Shown here: positions 839 to 12,373 of the stretch, in pieces
Layout: every line of letters starts with the position of its first letter
Position numbering within the stretch: position 1 is the first letter of the stretch
Origin: Pseudomonadota bacterium
GTDB lineage: Bacteria > Myxococcota > Bradymonadia > UBA4248
DNA length: 12,373 nucleotides
Reading direction: 5' to 3'
Assembly (NCBI GenBank): GCA_017629415.1
Contig: JAGBXG010000470.1
Coordinates: 1 to 12,373 of the forward strand
Notes under the pieces: generated by a model
Seen by the model: only the letters and a program-made list of their open reading frames with translations
Databases searched by the model: none
What the model was told of the DNA's origin: nothing
Translations under genes and position numbers: made by a program

Positions 839-2161
839 ATGAAAAGATTTACCATTTATATGACCATATTGACCGTTCTCAGCTGCACGGGATGCGGCGA
901 AGAACCCGAATGTACGATCGGACAAAGAATCTGTGAGAATAATGTCTCCAAAACATGTCATGAAGGCCACTGGCGTTCGATAGAATGCGCCAATGCCGCA
1001 CCGATATGCGATGAAACATACGGCTGCATTCCCATTCCACAAACATGCGGCAATGAACAGATCGAAGGCACGGAAGAATGCGACGGCGCAGCTTTGGGCG
1101 GCAAAACATGCAACGACATGTTCACAGGACTTGTCGGAAACCTGACCTGTCACGAATGCAAGTTTGACACCAGCGGCTGCCATGCGCCGGGATGTGCCGA
1201 AAATACCAAACGATGCGGCGAAAACGGCGTTGAAACATGTACCGACGGCCAATGGCTGCAAACCCAACTTTGCAGCACCGGCGAACGATGCGATAATGCA
1301 AAAGCCGAATGCGTACCTTATATTGCTTGCGAAACACCCGGTGTCAGCTGCATCGAACATATTTTATCAATATGCGCCGGCGGCCAGCTCTTTGAAACAG
1401 AATGCACAAACGGCCAAGTCTGCAGCGTTTCTCATGCCGCCTGCGAACCCCAAATCTGCGACGAAAATGCTCGCCGGTGCGATGGCTCAAAATCTCAAAT
1501 CTGTATTCAAAATGGCTGGTATGACACCATGGATTGCGCAACATCTGAAATGATATGTGACAACAGCAAAGGCGTTTGCGCACCGACCTGCACGGAAGGA
1601 GAAACCTCCTGTCATGCAGACTATTCTGCAGTTGTTTCATGCCAAGACGGCATCCAGACGGTGACGGAATGCGGCCCGAACAGCCGCTGCATGCTCGAAA
1701 ATGGCACCCCCAAATGCGCCCCATACGTCTGCGACGAAGGCATCGAATGCAAAGGTGCCAACCCCAACAGCACCATCAAAATGCTCAAGGTTTGCGAAAA
1801 TAATGTGCTCGTCAAAAAAGAAACATGCAAAGAAAGCGACGGCGTCATCTGCAGCGTGACCGAAGCTGCCTGCGTTCCCCTCGTGTGCAAAGCCGACGAT
1901 GTCGAATGCCAAACCAAAGATGGTGTCTCTTATATAGCACGATGCGGTAATAATGCCTGGGTGCTTGAAGCCTGCACCAATGGCACCGTCTGCACCATGG
2001 ATATCGAAGGCGACGGCAGTCTCTCATGCGCTGAAAAAGTCTGCGATGAAGGCTACAAATGCAATCATCATCAATCTGTTTTTTGCTGGAATAACAACGT
2101 TGCAACCCATATCGATTGCGGAGATGCCGGATGCGACGACTCAACGGGTAAGTGTAAATAG
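839..2161 (+). CDS. Secreted cysteine-rich lipoprotein with eight six-Cys modules
   Basis: This 440-residue protein starts with a short lipoprotein-type signal peptide (MKRFTIYMTILTVLSCTGC). The lipidated Cys is either C16 (lipobox VLSC) or C19 (CTGC), so it should be anchored in an envelope membrane and face away from the cytoplasm. The mature part contains eight modules of about 40-50 residues, each with six Cys spaced roughly x6, x7-14, x9-10, x5-7, x5-11. Many modules carry a G-x-W/L-x-x-x-x-C pattern in the middle. Between modules 1 and 2 lies a different unit (about residues 68-117), CGNEQIEGTEECDG followed by CHECKFDTSGC, resembling the Myxococcus disulfide repeat family. The even pairing of Cys suggests oxidative folding outside the cytoplasm. 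Its function is unknown; adhesion or surface display are guesses. The ATG has only a weak GGA upstream. The next gene starts 2 bases after the stop, implying co-transcription. Confidence 0.85.
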   Translation: MKRFTIYMTILTVLSCTGCGEEPECTIGQRICENNVSKTCHEGHWRSIECANAAPICDETYGCIPIPQTCGNEQIEGTEECDGAALGGKTCNDMFTGLVGNLTCHECKFDTSGCHAPGCAENTKRCGENGVETCTDGQWLQTQLCSTGERCDNAKAECVPYIACETPGVSCIEHILSICAGGQLFETECTNGQVCSVSHAACEPQICDENARRCDGSKSQICIQNGWYDTMDCATSEMICDNSKGVCAPTCTEGETSCHADYSAVVSCQDGIQTVTECGPNSRCMLENGTPKCAPYVCDEGIECKGANPNSTIKMLKVCENNVLVKKETCKESDGVICSVTEAACVPLVCKADDVECQTKDGVSYIARCGNNAWVLEACTNGTVCTMDIEGDGSLSCAEKVCDEGYKCNHHQSVFCWNNNVATHIDCGDAGCDDSTGKCK

Positions 2162-2163
2162 CG

Positions 2164-4002
2164 ATGGATACTCAATTTATTCGTACAGAACGCGTTGTGC
2201 GCGTCCAAAATTCGGACAACGGCTTATTTCTTGAAAGCCAAATGGGCAATGTTGAACTCCAGAATGTCGAAAATATTGAATGTTTTCGCTCGCAGCTCAA
2301 AACCGGCGATTTTATCAAGCTGGAACGCCGGGCGCCGGAAACTTTTAAGATTTTAGGCATCATTCAGGCCGGCAGCGTCCTGCATGAAGTCTATGAACTG
2401 GCTGCCAAACAAAACCTTGAATTCGGTTTCAGCGAAGCCATCGAAGCGGAAGTGGCACAACTCACAGATGTCGAAATGGATTTCTCCGATTGCGAAGATT
2501 TTTCACATATTCCGTTCGTAACGGTCGACGGTGCCGGCACCAAAGACCTCGACCAGGCCCTGTATGTGGGCACACCTGATGACGGATTCTACCAGCCGCA
2601 CAACGATTGTGCCTATGTCGTCTGGTATGCCATCGCCGATGCTTCATGGTTTGTACGGCCGGGCAGCGCCCTCTTTGAAGAAGCCCTCAAGCGCGGCACC
2701 AGCATTTATTTCGCCGATATGAGCGTCCCCATGCTGCCGCGCGCACTCTCCCAGGGCATCATCAGCCTCAATGCCGATGTCGATCGCCGTGCGCTCGTCT
2801 TCATCATGCAAGTCGCCGCCAACGGTGTCTGCCTCAAAACCGAACTCCGACGCGGAAAAATCCATTCACGCGCCAAACTGGCCAACGAAGATGTCAGCGT
2901 TTTTCTCAAAGATCCTCAAAATCATGCCTGGTCCAAGACCGATTACGCCCAAAGTCTTATCCATTTTAAAGATGTCGGCCTCATCCGCATGGCCGAAAGC
3001 CGCACACGCAACGTCGTCCATTTCAACCGCGTGGCCCTCGATGTCGGCCTGAACTATCACAAAACCGACTACGAACTCGGCGTAGATGCGCGCGCCGAAG
3101 TCGACCTCTACAACGAGCAGCTTTCTCTGCTCTGCAACATGGAAGGCGCCAAAATCCTCAATCATCTGGCTCAAGACGATCCCGAAGTTCTCGCTATTTT
3201 CCGCAACCACGAAGCGCCATCCGAACATGCACTTGCGGAACTTCACATCGAAATGAACGCCCTTGCCAAAGCCCAAAACATGCCCGAAGGCTGGCTCTGG
3301 AACCCCGAAACGACCAGCCTGGCCGACTTTTTCGAAGCCCTGCCGCGCGAAAGCCTCACCTGTGACGAAACCTGCGGCACCGACCATCAGCGCATGTGGC
3401 GTGTCCGACAAGCCATGGAACGCCTCGTCCTCATGATGCAGCGCCGAAGCGTCCTCTCCCCCGATGCCGGCCTCCATAGCGCCCTCGGTGTCAATCCCTA
3501 CGCGCGTTTCAGTGCCCCCATGCGCGAAATCGTCGGCATTTTCACACACAAAGAAGCCATCGAAGCCGAATTCGACGTCGAAAGCCCCCTCAGTCGTGAC
3601 GAAAATGCCCAGCTGCGCTCGCAGGTCATCCAAGCCGCCACCAAAGCCAAAAGCGTCCAGCGCAACATCGACAAAGCCGTCGACTCATGCGCCATCGCCC
3701 ACATCATCAGCCATGACTACGATGTCGAACCCGAAAAACGTCCCCTGCGACGCGGCACCATCCTCGGCATGAAATCCAGCGCCATCTACGTCCGCCTCGA
3801 CATGCCGCCCATCGAACTCAAAGTCTATATCAAAGACATCGCCGAAGCCACCGGCCAGAACTGGACCCTCAACGACGACAAAACCATCCTGACCAGCGCC
3901 GATGGCACCATCCGTTATGTCGTCGGCGACAGCATCGACTTGCGCGTCTCCAGTTTCGAGCCCGTCAAGAAAAAATGGCGCGTCATCCCCATCATCCCCT
4001 AA
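2164..4002 (+). CDS. RNB-domain exoribonuclease (RNase II/R family)
   Basis: The protein has 612 residues and should degrade RNA 3' to 5' in the cytoplasm using Mg2+. The RNB catalytic motif is at residues 119-134 (VTVDGAGTKDLDQALY), with D122, D128 and D130 in the places of RNase II D201, D207 and D209. The fourth acidic position (D210) is Q131, as in the DLDQ variants I recall from actinobacterial RNB proteins. The end of the RNB domain is seen in PYARFSAPMREIVGIFTHKEA (near residue 445), the counterpart of the RNase R 'HFTSPIRRY' region with substitutions. An OB/S1-like barrel probably occupies the last 80 residues. The N-terminal ~115 residues are too short for the two cold-shock domains of full RNase R. 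Third codon positions are strongly C/G, unlike sbcC and sbcD. The start follows the lipoprotein stop by 2 bases with only a weak purine stretch, suggesting translational coupling. A terminator follows at 4022. Confidence 0.92.
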   Translation: MDTQFIRTERVVRVQNSDNGLFLESQMGNVELQNVENIECFRSQLKTGDFIKLERRAPETFKILGIIQAGSVLHEVYELAAKQNLEFGFSEAIEAEVAQLTDVEMDFSDCEDFSHIPFVTVDGAGTKDLDQALYVGTPDDGFYQPHNDCAYVVWYAIADASWFVRPGSALFEEALKRGTSIYFADMSVPMLPRALSQGIISLNADVDRRALVFIMQVAANGVCLKTELRRGKIHSRAKLANEDVSVFLKDPQNHAWSKTDYAQSLIHFKDVGLIRMAESRTRNVVHFNRVALDVGLNYHKTDYELGVDARAEVDLYNEQLSLLCNMEGAKILNHLAQDDPEVLAIFRNHEAPSEHALAELHIEMNALAKAQNMPEGWLWNPETTSLADFFEALPRESLTCDETCGTDHQRMWRVRQAMERLVLMMQRRSVLSPDAGLHSALGVNPYARFSAPMREIVGIFTHKEAIEAEFDVESPLSRDENAQLRSQVIQAATKAKSVQRNIDKAVDSCAIAHIISHDYDVEPEKRPLRRGTILGMKSSAIYVRLDMPPIELKVYIKDIAEATGQNWTLNDDKTILTSADGTIRYVVGDSIDLRVSSFEPVKKKWRVIPIIP

Positions 4003-4319: not shown

Positions 4320-4353
4320 ATTGGTATGACGGTTAAAAACGAGCCTTCACTTG

Positions 4354-4376
4354 CTACTCACGGTGAGTAGTTTTTT
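4354..4376 (+). promoter_or_regulatory. Leader hairpin with T run, attenuator-like
   Basis: CTACTCA (4354-4360), loop CGG and TGAGTAG (4364-4370) form a 7-bp stem, followed directly by six Ts (4371-4376). The AGGAG ribosome binding site of the next gene begins only 3 bases later. It has the shape of an intrinsic terminator inside the 5' leader, so it could attenuate transcription or mask the ribosome site. The stem is only moderately GC-rich. Confidence 0.5.
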
Positions 4377-4389
4377 CCAGGAGAATGAG

Positions 4390-5373
4390 ATGGCAGAAAT
4401 TTTTGACACATCGTTGCTGCTTGCGCTTCCTGCATCCGGCAAATCTGAAGTTCGTAATTTTCTTACGAACAAAGATCCCGAAATGTTCCACATGGGTGAA
4501 ACGATTCAGCTTGATGACTATCCCTATGTCCACGTTCAGCTGGTCATTGACGAAGTGCTCGTTGAAATGGGCGAACCGCGCATTTATCACAGCGAAGATG
4601 ATGCCGGCGGCCGCAACGGCCCCTTCCTCGATAGCTTTGACTGGCCGGCCTTGATCGAACTTCTGAACGAAGACTATCATGAAATTTTGACGGGCAAAGC
4701 CGAAAATCCGAAGTATGCAGCCATCCGTTTGTTCGAACGTCTCGACAGTGCAGCTGTTCGCGTCGGCGGCGTTGCCAAGATTGCAGCTCTCAGCCCTGCA
4801 GTCCGTGACAAACTGGAAGAAAAACTCGAAGACGAAGCTCGCGAACTGTTCGACGAAAAAATCAAGAACGTGCTCAAATCTCGCGAGGGCAAAACGATCG
4901 TTATCGAATTCTCCCGTGGCGGCCCTGCTGGCGTTCGTCCGCTTCCCGAACACTATGGCTATGCCGGCAGCCTTCCCTGGCTTTCGCCCGAACTCCTCAA
5001 GCGTGCTGCCATTCTCTATATTTGGGTCACGCCTGAAGAATCACGCCGTAAGAATCGCGATCGCGCCCGTCCCGGCGAAGACAAATCGATCCTCTTCCAC
5101 GGTACGCCCGAATCGGTCATGCTCCAGGATTACGGCTCGGACGACATGGTCGAACTCATGGAAATGAGCGACCGCGAACACACCCTCCGCATCGAATCCC
5201 AGGGCAATGTTTACTATGTCCCGGTCGCACGCTTTGATAACCGCCGCGACCTCACGACATTTGCACGTAAAGATCCCTCTGAATGGAAAGCCGAAGAAAT
5301 CGAAGCCCTCGATAACGGCATCCGTGACACCGCTCTCAAACTTTGGGATGTTTACAAATCGATGCATTCCTAA
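4390..5373 (+). CDS. P-loop NTPase of unknown function, kinase-like
   Basis: This 327-residue, probably cytoplasmic protein has a P-loop close to its start, residues 12-19 (ALPASGKS), in which the first Gly of the usual GxxxxGKS is Ala. A second clear segment near residues 207-230 (LYIWVTPEESRRKNRDRARP) resembles the strand and Arg-rich lid of nucleotide-kinase-like proteins, where the lid closes over the phosphates. FSRGGPAGVRPLPEHYGY lies between them. I cannot name a substrate or family, and this fits a phosphotransferase or a regulatory NTPase. The start at 4390 is chosen because AGGAG (4379-4383) lies 6 bases upstream. A longer frame from a TTG at 4351 would run through the leader hairpin and is unlikely. 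It has its own promoter region and terminator and is a single-gene unit convergent with sbcC. Confidence 0.85.
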   Translation: MAEIFDTSLLLALPASGKSEVRNFLTNKDPEMFHMGETIQLDDYPYVHVQLVIDEVLVEMGEPRIYHSEDDAGGRNGPFLDSFDWPALIELLNEDYHEILTGKAENPKYAAIRLFERLDSAAVRVGGVAKIAALSPAVRDKLEEKLEDEARELFDEKIKNVLKSREGKTIVIEFSRGGPAGVRPLPEHYGYAGSLPWLSPELLKRAAILYIWVTPEESRRKNRDRARPGEDKSILFHGTPESVMLQDYGSDDMVELMEMSDREHTLRIESQGNVYYVPVARFDNRRDLTTFARKDPSEWKAEEIEALDNGIRDTALKLWDVYKSMHS

Positions 5374-5393
5374 TCTGAATCCCATTCAGACTT

Positions 5394-5425
5394 AAGCCCT
5401 CCGAATTGCCGGAGGGCTTTTTTTT
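5394..5425 (+). terminator. Intrinsic terminator of the P-loop NTPase gene
   Basis: A 10-bp stem, AAGCCCTCCG/CGGAGGGCTT (5394-5403 and 5410-5419), with a 6-nt loop runs into eight Ts (5418-5425). The other strand lacks a T run on its far side, so it is unlikely to stop the convergent sbcC transcript. Confidence 0.92.
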
Positions 5426-5539
5426 GTGTGCAGCGAGCTCTGCATGAGGGACGAAAAACGGTGAAGCAAATCCCCGGTTTTCTAAAAAAAAATAATTATC
5501 AGTAACCGTCCGAACCCACAAAACCGTTAAATCCATTGC

Positions 5540-10343: not shown

Positions 10344-10640
10344 ACATTATTCCACTGATGTTAAGTTCACCCGTTCGCCTCATTTGAATCCAACAAGAAC
10401 ACCCGCCTTTTGCCTATATGAAACCAGACTGGCTTGGGTACACGACATCGTCAGCTCAAAACAGATACAGCTGTAGCCACAGTATTCTCATGATAAGCTA
10501 TCCGATTAAAGCATATTTAATCTCGATGTTTAAAAACGATAGATTGAAACAATGAAATATCGTTTTAATTTTTTGTCACAGCAACGGCCAATTTCAACAC
10601 AAAAACCACAATTGGCTCGAGCTTAATTTTCAATGATACA
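10344..10640. other. Intergenic stretch between sbcD promoter and SRP RNA
   Basis: No gene is seen. The one clear structure is an AT-rich hairpin with arms AAAACGATA (10533-10541) and TATCGTTTT (10558-10566). A second small stem ATTG/CAAT (10543-10546 and 10550-10553) is nested inside. A run of six Ts follows on the plus strand (10569-10574). It could act as a weak back-up terminator, but no plus-strand gene precedes it. Confidence 0.5.
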
Positions 10641-10649
10641 AAATAAAAA

Positions 10650-10751
10650 AAGCAGCATCGAGGTGACGTACCCGCGTCGGTTCGTACCGTTGCTGCCTTC
10701 CGACCCTGGCGGATTAGTTCGTCTGCGCCACATCACCTCGATGCTGCTTTT
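10650..10751 (-). ncRNA. ffs: Signal recognition particle RNA (4.5S-type)
   Basis: On the minus strand the conserved domain IV is present: CCAGGGTCGGAAGGCAGCAA, with the GGAA tetraloop and the asymmetric loop that binds Ffh. The ends pair perfectly over about 19 bases (10648-10666 with 10733-10751, core GCAGCATCGAGGTGA), giving the long rod of a small bacterial SRP RNA of about 100 nt. It binds Ffh to target nascent membrane proteins to FtsY. The closing stem runs into seven Ts (minus strand), so the RNA probably ends at its own terminator. It is the last gene of the tRNA operon, starting about 3 bases after tRNA-Ser(GGA), so its 5' end must be made by processing unless it has a promoter inside the tRNA. 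Confidence 0.95.
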
Positions 10752-10754
10752 AAA

Positions 10755-10842
10755 CGGAGAGGGTGGGATTCGAACCCACGATACCCTTTTGAGATATACG
10801 CGATTTCCAATCGCGCGCCTTCGACCACTCGGCCACCTCTCC
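10755..10842 (-). tRNA. tRNA-Ser(GGA)
   Basis: It folds as a class II tRNA. The acceptor stem is GGAGAGG/CCTCTCC, the anticodon stem CGCGA/TCGCG with loop TTGGAAA (anticodon GGA, 10808-10806). It has a long variable arm and a T-loop TTCGAAT. The discriminator base is G, normal for serine. No CCA is encoded. It reads UCC and UCU. It is separated by 14 bases from tRNA-Ser(CGA). Confidence 0.96.
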
Positions 10843-10856
10843 AAGAAAAAGTGCCA

Positions 10857-10943
10857 AGGAGGAAAAGGGATTCGAACCCTTGATACGGCAAGCCGTATAC
10901 CTGATTTCGAGTCAGGCGCCTTCGACCACTCGGCCATTCCTCC
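10857..10943 (-). tRNA. tRNA-Ser(CGA)
   Basis: It is a class II tRNA with acceptor stem GGAGGAA/TTCCTCC, anticodon stem CCTGA/TCAGG with loop CTCGAAA (anticodon CGA, 10909-10907), a long variable arm built on TACGGC/GCCGTA, and a T arm AAGGG/CCCTT. It reads UCG. The base after the acceptor stem is T, so the discriminator would be U73, unlike the G73 usual for serine tRNAs. No CCA is encoded. It begins 7 bases after the tadA stop codon. Confidence 0.95.
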
Positions 10944-10950
10944 GAAAAAG

Positions 10951-11424
10951 CTACTTTTTCGATAATCTTAAATTGTCAAAGAAATCGCGAAGAAGTCTTG
11001 CTGATTCATCAGCATATATTCCTTCGTCAACTCTGATCCGATGATTCAATCTCGGATCTTCGCCCAAGGCGAAAAGAGATCGCATAGCGCCAGCTTTTGG
11101 ATCACGACACCCGAAAACAACCCGGTCAACACGAGACTGAAGCAACGCGCCTGTACACATAATACAAGGTTCAAGCGTCACATAAAGCGTCGAACGCATC
11201 AACCGCCAGTTCCCAAGCATCTCAGATGCTGTTTCAAGCGCGATAAGCTCCGCATGTCCCAGAATTCGATTTCCATCCATGCGCCGGTTGGAACCCCAAC
11301 CGCAAATCTTACCCTCAACAACAACCAAAGCACCTACTGGCACTTCGCCATGTAAATAAGCATCCCTGGCAAGTTTAAGCGCTAAAGACATATAGTGCTT
11401 ATCTAAAGAAGCCATAGAAGCCAT
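10951..11424 (-). CDS. tadA: tRNA-specific adenosine-34 deaminase TadA
   Basis: TadA deaminates A34 of tRNA-Arg(ACG) to inosine, so that one tRNA reads CGU, CGC and CGA. It is a zinc enzyme of the cytidine deaminase fold and is usually essential. In this 157-residue reading, H57-A58-E59 supplies one zinc ligand and the proton-shuttling Glu, and P86-C87-I-M-C90 gives the two Cys ligands. Further segments (GEVPVGALVV, YVTLEPCIMC, RVVFGCRDPKAGA, NHRI) align well with E. coli TadA. The start is uncertain: ATG at 11424 (chosen), GTG at 11427 or ATG at 11415. None has a Shine-Dalgarno sequence. The chosen ATG is 11 bases after the mature 3' end of tRNA-Arg, and the stop is 7 bases before tRNA-Ser(CGA). 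The gene is therefore embedded in a tRNA operon directly downstream of two copies of its substrate. Confidence 0.96.
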   Translation of the reverse strand: MASMASLDKHYMSLALKLARDAYLHGEVPVGALVVVEGKICGWGSNRRMDGNRILGHAELIALETASEMLGNWRLMRSTLYVTLEPCIMCTGALLQSRVDRVVFGCRDPKAGAMRSLFALGEDPRLNHRIRVDEGIYADESARLLRDFFDNLRLSKK

Positions 11425-11435
11425 CACACAACAAA

Positions 11436-11509
11436 TACACCGAAGTGGGCTCGAACCACCAACCTACGGCTTCGTAGGCCGTTGCTCTATCCAATTGAGC
11501 TATCGGTGC
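11436..11509 (-). tRNA. tRNA-Arg(ACG), copy next to tadA
   Basis: It is a 74-nt tRNA. The acceptor stem is GCACCGA/TCGGTGT with a G1-U72 wobble, and the anticodon stem ACGGC/GCCGT has loop CTACGAA (anticodon ACG, 11475-11473). The T-loop is TTCGAGC and the discriminator A, as in E. coli tRNA-Arg(ACG). A34 is the target of TadA, encoded immediately downstream. No CCA is encoded, so the 3' end must be trimmed and completed by CCA-adding enzyme. Confidence 0.96.
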
Positions 11510-11539
11510 ACAAATGACAACAATTTGACCAAATTGAAA

Positions 11540-11613
11540 TACACCGAAGTGGGCTCGAACCACCAACCTACGGCTTCGTAGGCCGTTGCTCTATCCAATT
11601 GAGCTATCGGTGC
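11540..11613 (-). tRNA. tRNA-Arg(ACG), second identical copy
   Basis: It is identical over the whole tRNA to the copy at 11436-11509, including the G1-U72 wobble and A discriminator; the identity extends a few bases beyond both ends. The two copies are spaced 104 bases apart, and the spacer between them differs from the outer flanks. It looks like a tandem duplication kept identical by selection or gene conversion. It doubles the dose of a TadA substrate. Confidence 0.96.
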
Positions 11614-11623
11614 ATAGTGAAAA

Positions 11624-11712
11624 CGAAGAGGGAGGGATTCGAACCCTCGATACATGTCAAAACGTATACTCGCTTAGCAGGCGAGCGCCTTCAGCCACTC
11701 GGCCACCTCTTC
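11624..11712 (-). tRNA. tRNA-Ser(GCT)
   Basis: It is a class II tRNA with acceptor stem GAAGAGG/CCTCTTC, anticodon stem CTCGC/GCGAG with loop CTGCTAA (anticodon GCT, 11678-11676), a long variable arm, T-loop TTCGAAT and discriminator G. It reads AGC and AGU. No CCA is encoded. It is the first gene of the stable-RNA operon, 10 bases before tRNA-Arg. Confidence 0.96.
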
Positions 11713-11774
11713 AAAATCCAGTCAAACTGTCATCGTGTCTGAGGATGTTTTTCATCATCCGTCGGACGAGCGGC

Positions 11775-11803
11775 CTTTTACGCATATCGAACTCATCATG
11801 CAA
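11775..11803 (-). promoter_or_regulatory. Possible promoter of the tRNA-tadA-ffs operon
   Basis: On the minus strand TTGCAT (11803-11798) and TAAAAG (11780-11775) are 17 bases apart. They are followed by a GC-rich stretch GGCCGC, as is typical of stable-RNA promoters under stringent control. The start would be near 11768, leaving a ~55-nt leader with a small GGATG/CATCC hairpin to be removed by processing. The -10 match is moderate. Confidence 0.4.
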
Positions 11804-12187
11804 GTTTTTTTTTCAAAAAAGTGATTTTCATTCTCTTTTGCACCTTTTCATATCTGACGAAAAACCTCGGAATTTGCTTATCCGGCATAGGGTTTAAAGG
11901 GATGGAATTTGGCATTTGGGGGCTTTTCTCATGGCAAACGCCACTTCACAAATCGCTTTGAACTGGTGTGACAGAAAAATGGAATTGGATATCTAAGTCC
12001 TTTTTCGCCCCTTTTACTCGATAGCATACCGTTTCTTCGTCAGTTGCATTCATCCAATCGGTCACCTGCGGCAGTGCGTTCTTTTCTTTTATTTCTTGTC
12101 TTCTTGAAATCACATTCGTCCAACGTCAAAACTCAGCAGCATTCGCAGAGTGATTAAATTTACGAATCTTGCAAATTCCCATTGTGG
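11804..12187. other. Intergenic stretch with no recognised gene
   Basis: I see no open frame with start signal and protein-like composition here, and no RNA gene. It contains T-rich runs near the tRNA promoter and mixed unremarkable sequence up to the GC-rich repeat. Confidence 0.5.
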
Positions 12188-12256
12188 GTTCCAAGGGGCT
12201 GAGCCCCTTGGTGGGGTTTGGGGCGAAGCCCCAACGGGGTGTGGGGCAGCGCCCCT
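12188..12256. repeat. GC-rich triple-hairpin intergenic repeat, intact copy
   Basis: Three consecutive perfect inverted repeats with 3-nt loops are present: CCAAGGGGC-TGA-GCCCCTTGG (12191-12211), TTGGGGC-GAA-GCCCCAA (12218-12234) and GGGGC-AGC-GCCCC (12243-12255). The composition is far more GC-rich than the flanks. A degraded relative is at 5540-5655, so this is a dispersed, REP-like family in this genome. It does not code for protein. Confidence 0.85.
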
Positions 12257-12260
12257 AAAC

Positions 12261-12373
12261 TGTACCCATAAAATAGGACACTAACAAAAGAGGGGTGTCC
12301 CAATGTCATAGACACTTGAAAAAGGGCCATCCCCTTGGTAGTGGACAATGTCCACATTGGAGTTTACCAATGA
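12261..12373 (+). mobile_element. Possible left end of an insertion sequence, cut by the window edge
   Basis: Immediately after the GC-rich repeat, TGTACCCATAAAATAGGACA has the look of an IS terminal sequence (TG start, CCC, then a T/AGGACA motif as in several IS3-family ends). It is followed by an inverted repeat GGACAC/GTGTCC (12276-12281 and 12295-12300). A frame is open from 12277 to the window end, with a possible GTG start at 12295. It reads CHRHLKKGHPLGSGQCPHW, which could be the Cys-containing N-terminus of a transposase. A second palindrome GTGGACA/TGTCCAC sits at 12341-12355. The family cannot be named from this fragment. Confidence 0.3.

What the first reader, a model, noticed from the sequence alone, without database searches (positions are those of the whole stretch)
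10951..11613. tadA lies directly behind two identical copies of its substrate tRNA-Arg(ACG)
The sequence shows two identical tRNA-Arg(ACG) genes followed on the same strand by tadA. Established knowledge is that in most bacteria the only major TadA tRNA substrate is tRNA-Arg(ACG), whose A34 becomes inosine. Enzyme and substrate in one transcript would tie modification capacity to substrate dose. I infer selection for co-regulation.
Basis: partly seen in the sequence, partly recalled or inferred. Interest (0 to 1): 0.72.

Follow-up and report, generated by a model that had tools for sequence, protein, structure and literature searches.

The report
Inosine enzyme inside its tRNA operon
A bacterium of the myxobacterial group carries the gene for the enzyme that edits one arginine tRNA between the genes of that tRNA and several serine tRNAs, a very old gene order that is only partly explained by the enzyme and its target needing each other.

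Summary
On the minus strand two identical tRNA-Arg(ACG) genes are followed by tadA. tadA starts 20 nt after one tRNA and ends 7 nt before the next, so the spacer has no room for a promoter. In five close relatives with the whole array in view, every near-identical tRNA-Arg(ACG) copy found lies in this cluster (2 or 3 copies).

The order is old. Among 240 tadA loci from seven phylum samples, 77 have tRNA-Arg(ACG) upstream on the same strand; some also have serS in front and dnaX behind. tilS, another enzyme with one tRNA substrate, had no tRNA beside it in the 30 loci read.

Against selection on the enzyme-substrate pair alone: non-substrate serine tRNAs lie behind tadA more often (140 of 240), and in a Bacillota phylum tRNA-Arg(CCT) separates tadA from its substrate in 11 of 12 loci. 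Best reading: one inherited stable-RNA operon, with a fixed TadA-to-substrate ratio as a plausible but unproven benefit.

The parts
11805..11820 (-). A/T tract just upstream of the -35 element (UP-element-like)
   Evidence: a run of six A is aligned in 7 of 7 upstream regions; UP-element function is inference
11798..11803 (-). -35-like hexamer TTGCAT
   Evidence: CTTGC conserved in 7 of 7 upstream regions; not reported by the consensus scan
11775..11780 (-). -10-like hexamer TAAAAG, 17 nt after the -35
   Evidence: GCGTANAAG conserved in 7 of 7
11767..11774 (-). G+C-rich discriminator, as in stringently controlled stable-RNA promoters
   Evidence: sequence; stringent control is inference from recalled knowledge
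11623..11713 (-). tRNA-Ser(GCT)
   Evidence: ARAGORN, Rfam RF00005 61.4 bits
11539..11614 (-). tRNA-Arg(ACG), first copy
   Evidence: identical to the second copy
11435..11510 (-). tRNA-Arg(ACG), second copy; CCA not encoded
11416..11435 (-). 20-nt tadA leader between the tRNA 3' end (11436) and the ATG; weak SD-like GATGG where L002 and L003 have AAGGG and AAAGG
10951..11415 (-). tadA, tRNA adenosine(34) deaminase, 154 aa
   Evidence: NF008113 152.1 bits; PDB TadA matches; start placed by relatives
10857..10943 (-). tRNA-Ser(CGA), 7 nt after the tadA stop codon
10754..10843 (-). tRNA-Ser(GGA)
10652..10744 (-). bacterial small SRP RNA; long stem followed by a T-run that probably also ends the transcript
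   Evidence: RF00169 36.7 bits, under gathering 40; of 12 relatives scanned 11 have the match and 9 are over 40; fold z-score -6.48

Best explanation
This is one mixed operon for stable RNAs and one protein. Transcription starts at a conserved, stable-RNA-type promoter about 60 bp in front of tRNA-Ser(GCT), runs through two tRNA-Arg(ACG) genes, tadA, tRNA-Ser(CGA), tRNA-Ser(GGA) and the SRP RNA, and stops at the SRP stem plus T-run. Cutting out the flanking tRNAs frees the tadA mRNA with a 20-nt leader and a 7-nt tail, so tadA output follows the production and processing of its substrate tRNA. The gene order descends from an ancient cluster serS - tRNA-Ser(TGA) - tRNA-Ser(GCT) - tRNA-Arg(ACG) - tadA - tRNA-Ser(CGA) - tRNA-Ser(GGA) - SRP RNA - dnaX, and inheritance explains most of the adjacency. 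In the window's clade tRNA-Arg(ACG) was multiplied in tandem inside the operon, so enzyme and substrate dose stay linked. Shown: anatomy, conservation of order, promoter footprint, location of the tRNA-Arg copies that were found. Inferred: promoter function, single transcript, release by processing, stringent control, a benefit of the fixed ratio.
For: Anatomy. Footprint A6-N-CTTGC-N-GCGTANAAG with a G+C-rich stretch behind it, aligned in all 7 upstream regions that were in view. Short tadA leaders in relatives: 13 to 21 nt in L002-L007. SRP RNA behind the cluster in 11 of 12 relatives scanned, 9 over the gathering score. Survey: 77 of 240 tadA loci have tRNA-Arg(ACG) upstream on the same strand, in six of seven phylum samples (Myxococcota 46 of 85, Nitrospirota 10 of 30, Bacillota phylum 12 of 30, Aquificota 5 of 8, Bacteroidota 3 of 30, Desulfuromusa phylum 1 of 31, Pseudomonadota 0 of 26). 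The order Ser(TGA)-Ser(GCT)-Arg(ACG)-tadA-Ser(CGA)-Ser(GGA) occurs in 26 Myxococcota, 4 Nitrospirota and 1 Bacillota-phylum loci. serS upstream in 15 and dnaX downstream in 63 of 240, with short flanks (family identity of samples). tRNA-Arg(ACG) copies elsewhere in the genome: of 42 matches outside the tadA contigs in 12 genomes, 41 were read; none is a complete tRNA with anticodon ACG, one is a contig-end piece beside tRNA-Ser(GCT). In E. coli tRNA-Arg2 competes with mRNAs for TadA, so the ratio matters (abstract and passages of PMC13170351).
Against: No transcript data. The generic promoter scan lists no match at the proposed promoter. The leader is about 70 nt in L001 (about 26 if an in-frame ATG further up is the start) and about 98 nt in L008, which leaves more room for an extra start there. 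The tadA ribosome-binding site in the window is weak. In B. subtilis the genes behind yaaJ (tadA) have their own promoters (passage of PMC10454642). SRP RNA at the gathering score was found in only 4 of 20 loci scanned from other samples (L120, L222, L286, L287). The window ends 660 nt in front of the cluster, so serS could not be looked for, and sbcD, not dnaX, lies behind.
Confidence: 0.7

Rival explanations
1. Selection for the enzyme-substrate pair itself: tadA sits behind tRNA-Arg(ACG) because a fixed ratio of enzyme to substrate is favoured.
For: Arg(ACG) is the nearest upstream tRNA in 46 of 47 Myxococcota loci that have an upstream tRNA, 9 of 10 Nitrospirota and 5 of 5 Aquificota. In 15 of 240 loci Arg(ACG) is with tadA although no Ser(CGA) or Ser(GGA) is behind it (some of these are near contig ends, 13 of 221 with 400-nt flanks). 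Tandem copies are inside the operon in the window's clade. More tRNA-Arg2 lowers mRNA editing in E. coli (abstract of PMC13170351).
Against: Ser(CGA) or Ser(GGA) behind tadA is commoner (140 of 240) and is there without Arg(ACG) in 78. Where Ser(GCT) is upstream in Myxococcota, Arg(ACG) is with it in 33 of 34, and L124 and L142 keep the Ser(GCT)-Arg(ACG) pair together on the other strand, away from tadA. In the Bacillota phylum Arg(CCT) lies between in 11 of 12 loci with Arg(ACG). Pseudomonadota 0 of 26. In E. coli less tRNA-Arg2 did not markedly raise mRNA editing (passage of PMC13170351).
Confidence: 0.25
2. Pure inheritance: the neighbours are leftovers of an ancestral translation gene cluster and have no regulatory meaning for tadA.
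For: Order and strand almost invariant: of Arg(ACG) genes within 1 kb of tadA, 79 are upstream on the same strand and 2 are otherwise; of Ser(CGA) genes 135 are downstream and 1 upstream. The cluster also holds serS and dnaX in some loci.
Against: 28 changes of the Arg(ACG) state on a quick TadA tree of 221 loci suggest that the link breaks easily, yet it persists in far lineages; the tree is weakly resolved, with only 5 independent pairs on well supported branches. The spacers of 20 and 7 nt make co-transcription hard to avoid in the window.
Confidence: 0.35
3. tadA has its own promoter inside or between the tRNA-Arg copies, so the genes are neighbours but not one transcript.
For: Longer leaders in L001 and L008; own promoters of genes behind yaaJ in B. 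subtilis.
Against: Only 20 nt between tRNA and ATG in the window, 13 to 21 nt in L002-L007. The 28-nt spacer between the tRNA copies folds no better than shuffles, and the one promoter-like match in 10400-12373 lies elsewhere; a promoter inside the tRNA gene would not be seen by conservation.
Confidence: 0.12

Closest known systems
B. subtilis yaaJ(tadA)-scr-dnaX-yaaK-recR region (PMC10454642, passages read)
   Same: tadA directly in front of SRP RNA (scr) and dnaX
   Different: The downstream genes are said to have their own promoters there, and the passages read mention no tRNA-Arg(ACG) beside yaaJ. The window has tRNA genes on both sides of tadA and sbcD, not dnaX, behind the SRP RNA.
E. 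coli serV-argVYZQ operon (named in passages of PMC13170351; serV as tRNA-Ser(GCU) is recalled)
   Same: tRNA-Ser followed by tandem tRNA-Arg2 copies
   Different: tadA is not part of it as named there; in 26 Pseudomonadota loci none had tRNA-Arg(ACG) within 1 kb upstream of tadA.
Mixed tRNA-protein operons such as E. coli thrU-tyrU-glyT-thrT-tufB (recalled; the one search for it, listed only an unrelated paper)
   Same: A protein gene is transcribed with tRNAs and freed by tRNA processing
   Different: There the protein is EF-Tu, which binds nearly all tRNAs; here it is an enzyme whose main tRNA substrate is in the same set, with tRNAs on both sides.

Membership tests
TadA, tRNA adenosine(34) deaminase | Full-length match to the curated family above its cut-off | tested here: met
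   NF008113 152.1 bits, cut-off 150; PDB matches 1z3a 134.6, 3ocq 131.2, 2b3j 130.2 bits
TadA, tRNA adenosine(34) deaminase | Zinc deaminase motifs HAE and PCxxC | tested here: met
   GHAELIALE and LEPCIMC in the translation; the motifs are recalled
TadA, tRNA adenosine(34) deaminase | Converts A34 of tRNA-Arg(ACG) to inosine | not testable with these tools
   needs RNA sequencing or an enzyme assay
tRNA-Arg(ACG) | Cloverleaf with anticodon ACG | tested here: met
   ARAGORN, RF00005 65 bits for each copy
Bacterial small SRP RNA | Rfam RF00169 at or above the gathering score | tested here: inconclusive
   36.7 against 40 in the window; 9 of 12 relatives scanned are over 40; strong stem, z -6.48
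Mixed tRNA-protein operon | One promoter in front, none inside, terminator at the end | tested here: inconclusive
   Conserved block in 7 of 7 upstream regions and SRP stem plus T-run; the consensus scan did not list the promoter
Mixed tRNA-protein operon | A single RNA spans tRNA and coding sequence | not testable with these tools
   no RNA data
Ancestral serS-tRNA-tadA-SRP-dnaX cluster | tRNA-Ser(GCT) and Arg(ACG) upstream, tRNA-Ser(CGA), tRNA-Ser(GGA) and SRP RNA downstream of tadA | tested here: met
   tRNA-Ser(TGA) is not in the window
Ancestral serS-tRNA-tadA-SRP-dnaX cluster | dnaX behind the SRP RNA | tested here: not met
   sbcD and an SbcC-like gene follow in the window; so the window holds the core of the cluster without this flank
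Ancestral serS-tRNA-tadA-SRP-dnaX cluster | serS in front | tested here: inconclusive
   only 660 nt of the window lie in front of tRNA-Ser(GCT); no ORF of serS length there

The most novel reading that the evidence does not exclude
The operon is a ratio device: because TadA also edits mRNAs and tRNA-Arg(ACG) competes with them for it, putting the enzyme and the copies of its tRNA substrate under one growth-controlled promoter keeps off-target mRNA editing constant through growth phases. Bacteria that split the pair (such as E. coli) gained growth-phase-dependent mRNA editing.
Probability: 0.18. Interest if true: 0.78.

Novelty: new variant of a known kind. Interest (0 to 1): 0.48.

Why it matters
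A tRNA-editing enzyme lodged between its substrate tRNA and other tRNA genes, in the same order in samples of several phyla, is a natural experiment on enzyme-to-substrate ratio. A 2026 study of E. coli, where the two are apart, reports that tRNA-Arg2 competes with mRNAs for TadA (abstract). Linked and unlinked species can now be compared: linked ones should show flatter mRNA editing through growth. It also gives a clear, old gene order (serS, serine tRNAs, tRNA-Arg(ACG), tadA, SRP RNA, dnaX) with which to annotate operons of stable RNAs in uncultured phyla.

Tried and rejected
Chance adjacency: rejected by the tilS control and by cross-phylum conservation. A tadA promoter in the spacer before its start: no room in the window. 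A terminator or regulatory hairpin between the two tRNA-Arg copies: fold no better than shuffles. A ribosome-binding site hidden in the tRNA: dropped when relatives showed the start at 11415 with an SD-like stretch in the leader. YrlA, sX4 and plastid 3'UTR matches: below their gathering scores and overlapping tRNA genes, taken as chance. Independent-pairs test of Arg link against Ser link on a TadA tree: too few supported pairs to decide. One search drew the same genomes as apart from its seed and added one locus. Literature: eight searches listed no paper whose title or abstract start describes tRNA-Arg(ACG)-tadA linkage; two searches listed 20 of 72 and 12 of 70 papers, and subscription papers and preprints are not held. 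Passages of PMC10454642, PMC4227106 and PMC4342826 were read and say nothing on the linkage.

What changed on checking: the novel case went from 0.2 to 0.18 and the best explanation from 0.72 to 0.70, because two results against them had been left out (less tRNA-Arg2 did not markedly raise mRNA editing in E. coli; SRP RNA in only 4 of 20 wider loci).

Full report
What is there. On the minus strand of the window, in order of transcription: tRNA-Ser(GCT) 11713-11623, tRNA-Arg(ACG) 11614-11539, tRNA-Arg(ACG) 11510-11435, tadA, tRNA-Ser(CGA) 10943-10857, tRNA-Ser(GGA) 10843-10754, and an SRP RNA 10744-10652. The two tRNA-Arg genes are identical over 76 nt. The tadA ORF passes the curated TadA cut-off (152.1 against 150 bits) and matches solved TadA structures. 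Relatives place its start at the ATG at 11415, 20 nt after the end of the tRNA; the stop codon ends 7 nt before tRNA-Ser(CGA). The SRP match is 36.7 bits, below the gathering score of 40; of 12 relatives scanned, 11 have the match and 9 are over 40, L004 ending before the place. The stem folds far better than shuffles (z -6.48) and is followed by a run of T, which would also serve as terminator (inference). CGT, CGC and CGA codons, which an ICG anticodon reads, make up 137 of 178 arginine codons in six ORFs of the window.

The promoter. Aligning the DNA in front of tRNA-Ser(GCT) in the seven members of the clade where it is in view (window, L001-L004, L008, L394) gives one conserved block: a run of A, CTTGC, and GCGTANAAG, with 17 nt between TTGCAT and TAAAAG in the window and a G+C-rich stretch behind. 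That is the make-up of stable-RNA promoters under stringent control (recalled, not tested). The consensus scan does not list it; the -35 hexamer departs from TTGACA. No conserved block was looked for elsewhere.

The close relatives. Eight MAGs with 74-88% TadA identity carry the same set as far as their contigs reach. Their titles say Proteobacteria or Myxococcales, four of them from goat, buffalo, roe deer and cattle guts; the phylum name Myxococcota is my inference. The number of tRNA-Arg(ACG) copies is 2 in L001 and L008 and 3 in L002, L003 and L004; in L005, L006 and L007 the contig starts close to the first complete copy. The tadA leader is 13 to 21 nt in L002-L007, about 70 nt in L001 (about 26 if an in-frame ATG further up is used) and about 98 nt in L008.

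Copies elsewhere. The window's tRNA-Arg searched in 12 genomes gave 63 matches, 21 of them in tadA contigs. Full-length matches (positions 1-76) lie only in the tadA contigs of G001-G004 and G006-G008; G005 matches from 2 to 76 in its tadA contig. Of the other 42 matches I read 41 in 40 fetched stretches; G014:C180 was not read. One of the 41 is a contig-end piece of 55 nt beside tRNA-Ser(GCT) in G005 (L394); the tRNAs called at the others have anticodons other than ACG. The search is blunt for far genomes: in G014 it missed the tRNA-Arg(ACG) beside tadA that ARAGORN finds in L035. The genomes are incomplete, so this shows clustering of the copies found, not of all copies.

The wider survey. 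In the 80 named loci, chosen by likeness to the window's TadA, tRNA-Arg(ACG) lies within about 350 nt upstream of tadA on the same strand in 15: L001-L011, L027 (WOR-3), L035 (Myxococcales), L060 (Nitrospirae) and L063 (Aquificota). I then searched phylum samples with the TadA model and read 240 loci with ARAGORN. Genomes with a match at 1e-25 and loci read: Myxococcota 85 of 112, 85 read; Nitrospirota 35 of 37, 30; Desulfuromusa phylum 31 of 35, 30, plus one seed (L278); Pseudomonadota 26 of 36, 26 (second hit L277 dropped); Aquificota 8 of 9, 8; Bacillota phylum 33 of 37, 30; Bacteroidota 37 of 37, 30. Where fewer were read they are the best scoring, not random; phylum names are those of the seed records or inferred. 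Paralogue hits (L101-L110) were not counted. tRNA-Arg(ACG) lies within 1 kb upstream on the same strand in 46 of 85, 10 of 30, 1 of 31, 0 of 26, 5 of 8, 12 of 30 and 3 of 30; total 77 of 240. tRNA-Ser(CGA) or (GGA) lies downstream in 69, 18, 21, 1, 6, 25 and 0; total 140 of 240. Requiring 400 nt of flank on both sides gives 72 and 128 of 221. Both links are present in 62, Arg alone in 15, Ser alone in 78, neither in 85.

The ancestral order. The commonest complete order is Ser(TGA)-Ser(GCT)-Arg(ACG)-tadA-Ser(CGA)-Ser(GGA): 26 Myxococcota, 4 Nitrospirota and 1 Bacillota-phylum loci; 4 more of the last have it with Arg(CCT) before tadA. SRP RNA reached the gathering score in 4 of 20 loci scanned from the wider samples: L120, L222 and, in its large form, L286 and L287; a short core pattern occurs behind tadA in 62 of 240. 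serS in front was found in 15 and dnaX behind in 63 of 240 loci, with family identity checked on samples. Flanks of 1.5-2 kb limit these counts. In L282 (Aquificota sample) Arg(ACG)-tadA-Ser(CGA) sits between queC and rho. Of Arg(ACG) genes within 1 kb, 79 are upstream on the same strand and 2 are otherwise. This near-fixed order speaks for one ancestral cluster, broken many times. A quick TadA tree needs 28 changes for the Arg link and 29 for the Ser link among 221 loci; the tree is weakly resolved.

Is it more than neighbourhood? TilS, also an enzyme with one tRNA substrate, is the control: no tRNA in the 30 best-scoring loci of 104 genomes with a match, against 29 of 30 tadA loci with any tRNA and 21 of 30 with Arg(ACG) on either strand. 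The tilS loci are centred on its N-terminal domain, so the rest of the gene takes up part of the downstream flank. The tadA link is nevertheless not specific to the substrate: serine tRNAs are commoner neighbours; Arg(CCT) is the nearest upstream tRNA in 15 of 30 Bacillota-phylum loci and stands between tadA and Arg(ACG) in 11 of 12; Arg(TCG) is nearest in 5 of 30 Bacteroidota loci; and Ser(GCT)-Arg(ACG) stay together where they have left tadA (L124, L142).

Mechanism. Most likely: one primary transcript; RNase P cuts in front of each tRNA and 3' processing follows behind; tadA mRNA is released with 20 nt in front and 7 nt behind (spacers shown, processing inferred). TadA output then follows stable-RNA transcription and tRNA processing. 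In E. coli more tRNA-Arg2 lowers mRNA editing, and TadA overproduction raises it; but less tRNA-Arg2 did not markedly raise mRNA editing, and editing of the one remaining tRNA-Arg2 copy fell, from which its authors speculate that tandem copies in one operon help to recruit TadA (abstract and passages of PMC13170351). A shared operon would hold the enzyme-to-tRNA ratio steady; this is the testable idea that makes the finding worth following. In B. subtilis yaaJ is dispensable and the genes behind it have own promoters (passages of PMC10454642), so the coupling cannot be essential everywhere.

Standing. The parts are all known kinds. For the operon with the editing enzyme between its substrate tRNA and serine tRNAs, eight searches of the held library listed no paper whose title or abstract start describes it.

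Noticed in passing
L016, L033, L046-L049, L057, L067, L073, L078, L099 and others: In Ignavibacteria-like and some Bacteroidota genomes the tRNA just upstream of tadA on the same strand is tRNA-Arg(TCG), which is not a TadA substrate; L336 and L338 have Arg(ACG) then Arg(TCG) then tadA.
   Followed up: partly
L290, L292, L296, L298, L302, L303, L305, L308, L312, L313, L315: In the Bacillota-phylum sample tRNA-Arg(CCT) is placed between tRNA-Arg(ACG) and tadA.
   Followed up: partly
L083, L195, L211, L212, L213, L218, L220: These Nitrospirota loci have some 600 bp between tRNA-Ser(GCT) and tRNA-Arg(ACG), enough for one gene that was not identified.
   Followed up: no
window 12188-12260 and 5357-5432: G+C-rich palindromic intergenic stretches that give weak, sub-threshold matches to CRISPR-repeat and sRNA families; they look like dispersed intergenic repeats, which was not tested.
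   Followed up: no
window 2164-4002 (+): RNB-domain exoribonuclease, RNase R-like but far below the RNase R cut-off (184.7 against 597.85 bits).
   Followed up: no
window 4351-5373 (+) and 839-2161 (+): Two ORFs without a Pfam match at 0.001; the second is a cysteine-rich repeat protein with a lipoprotein-like start (by eye).
   Followed up: no
L132/L037 seed genome G132: A MAG titled Chloroflexi (L037) falls in the same phylum group as a Desulfuromusa MAG in the held taxonomy, so its title is probably wrong.
   Followed up: no
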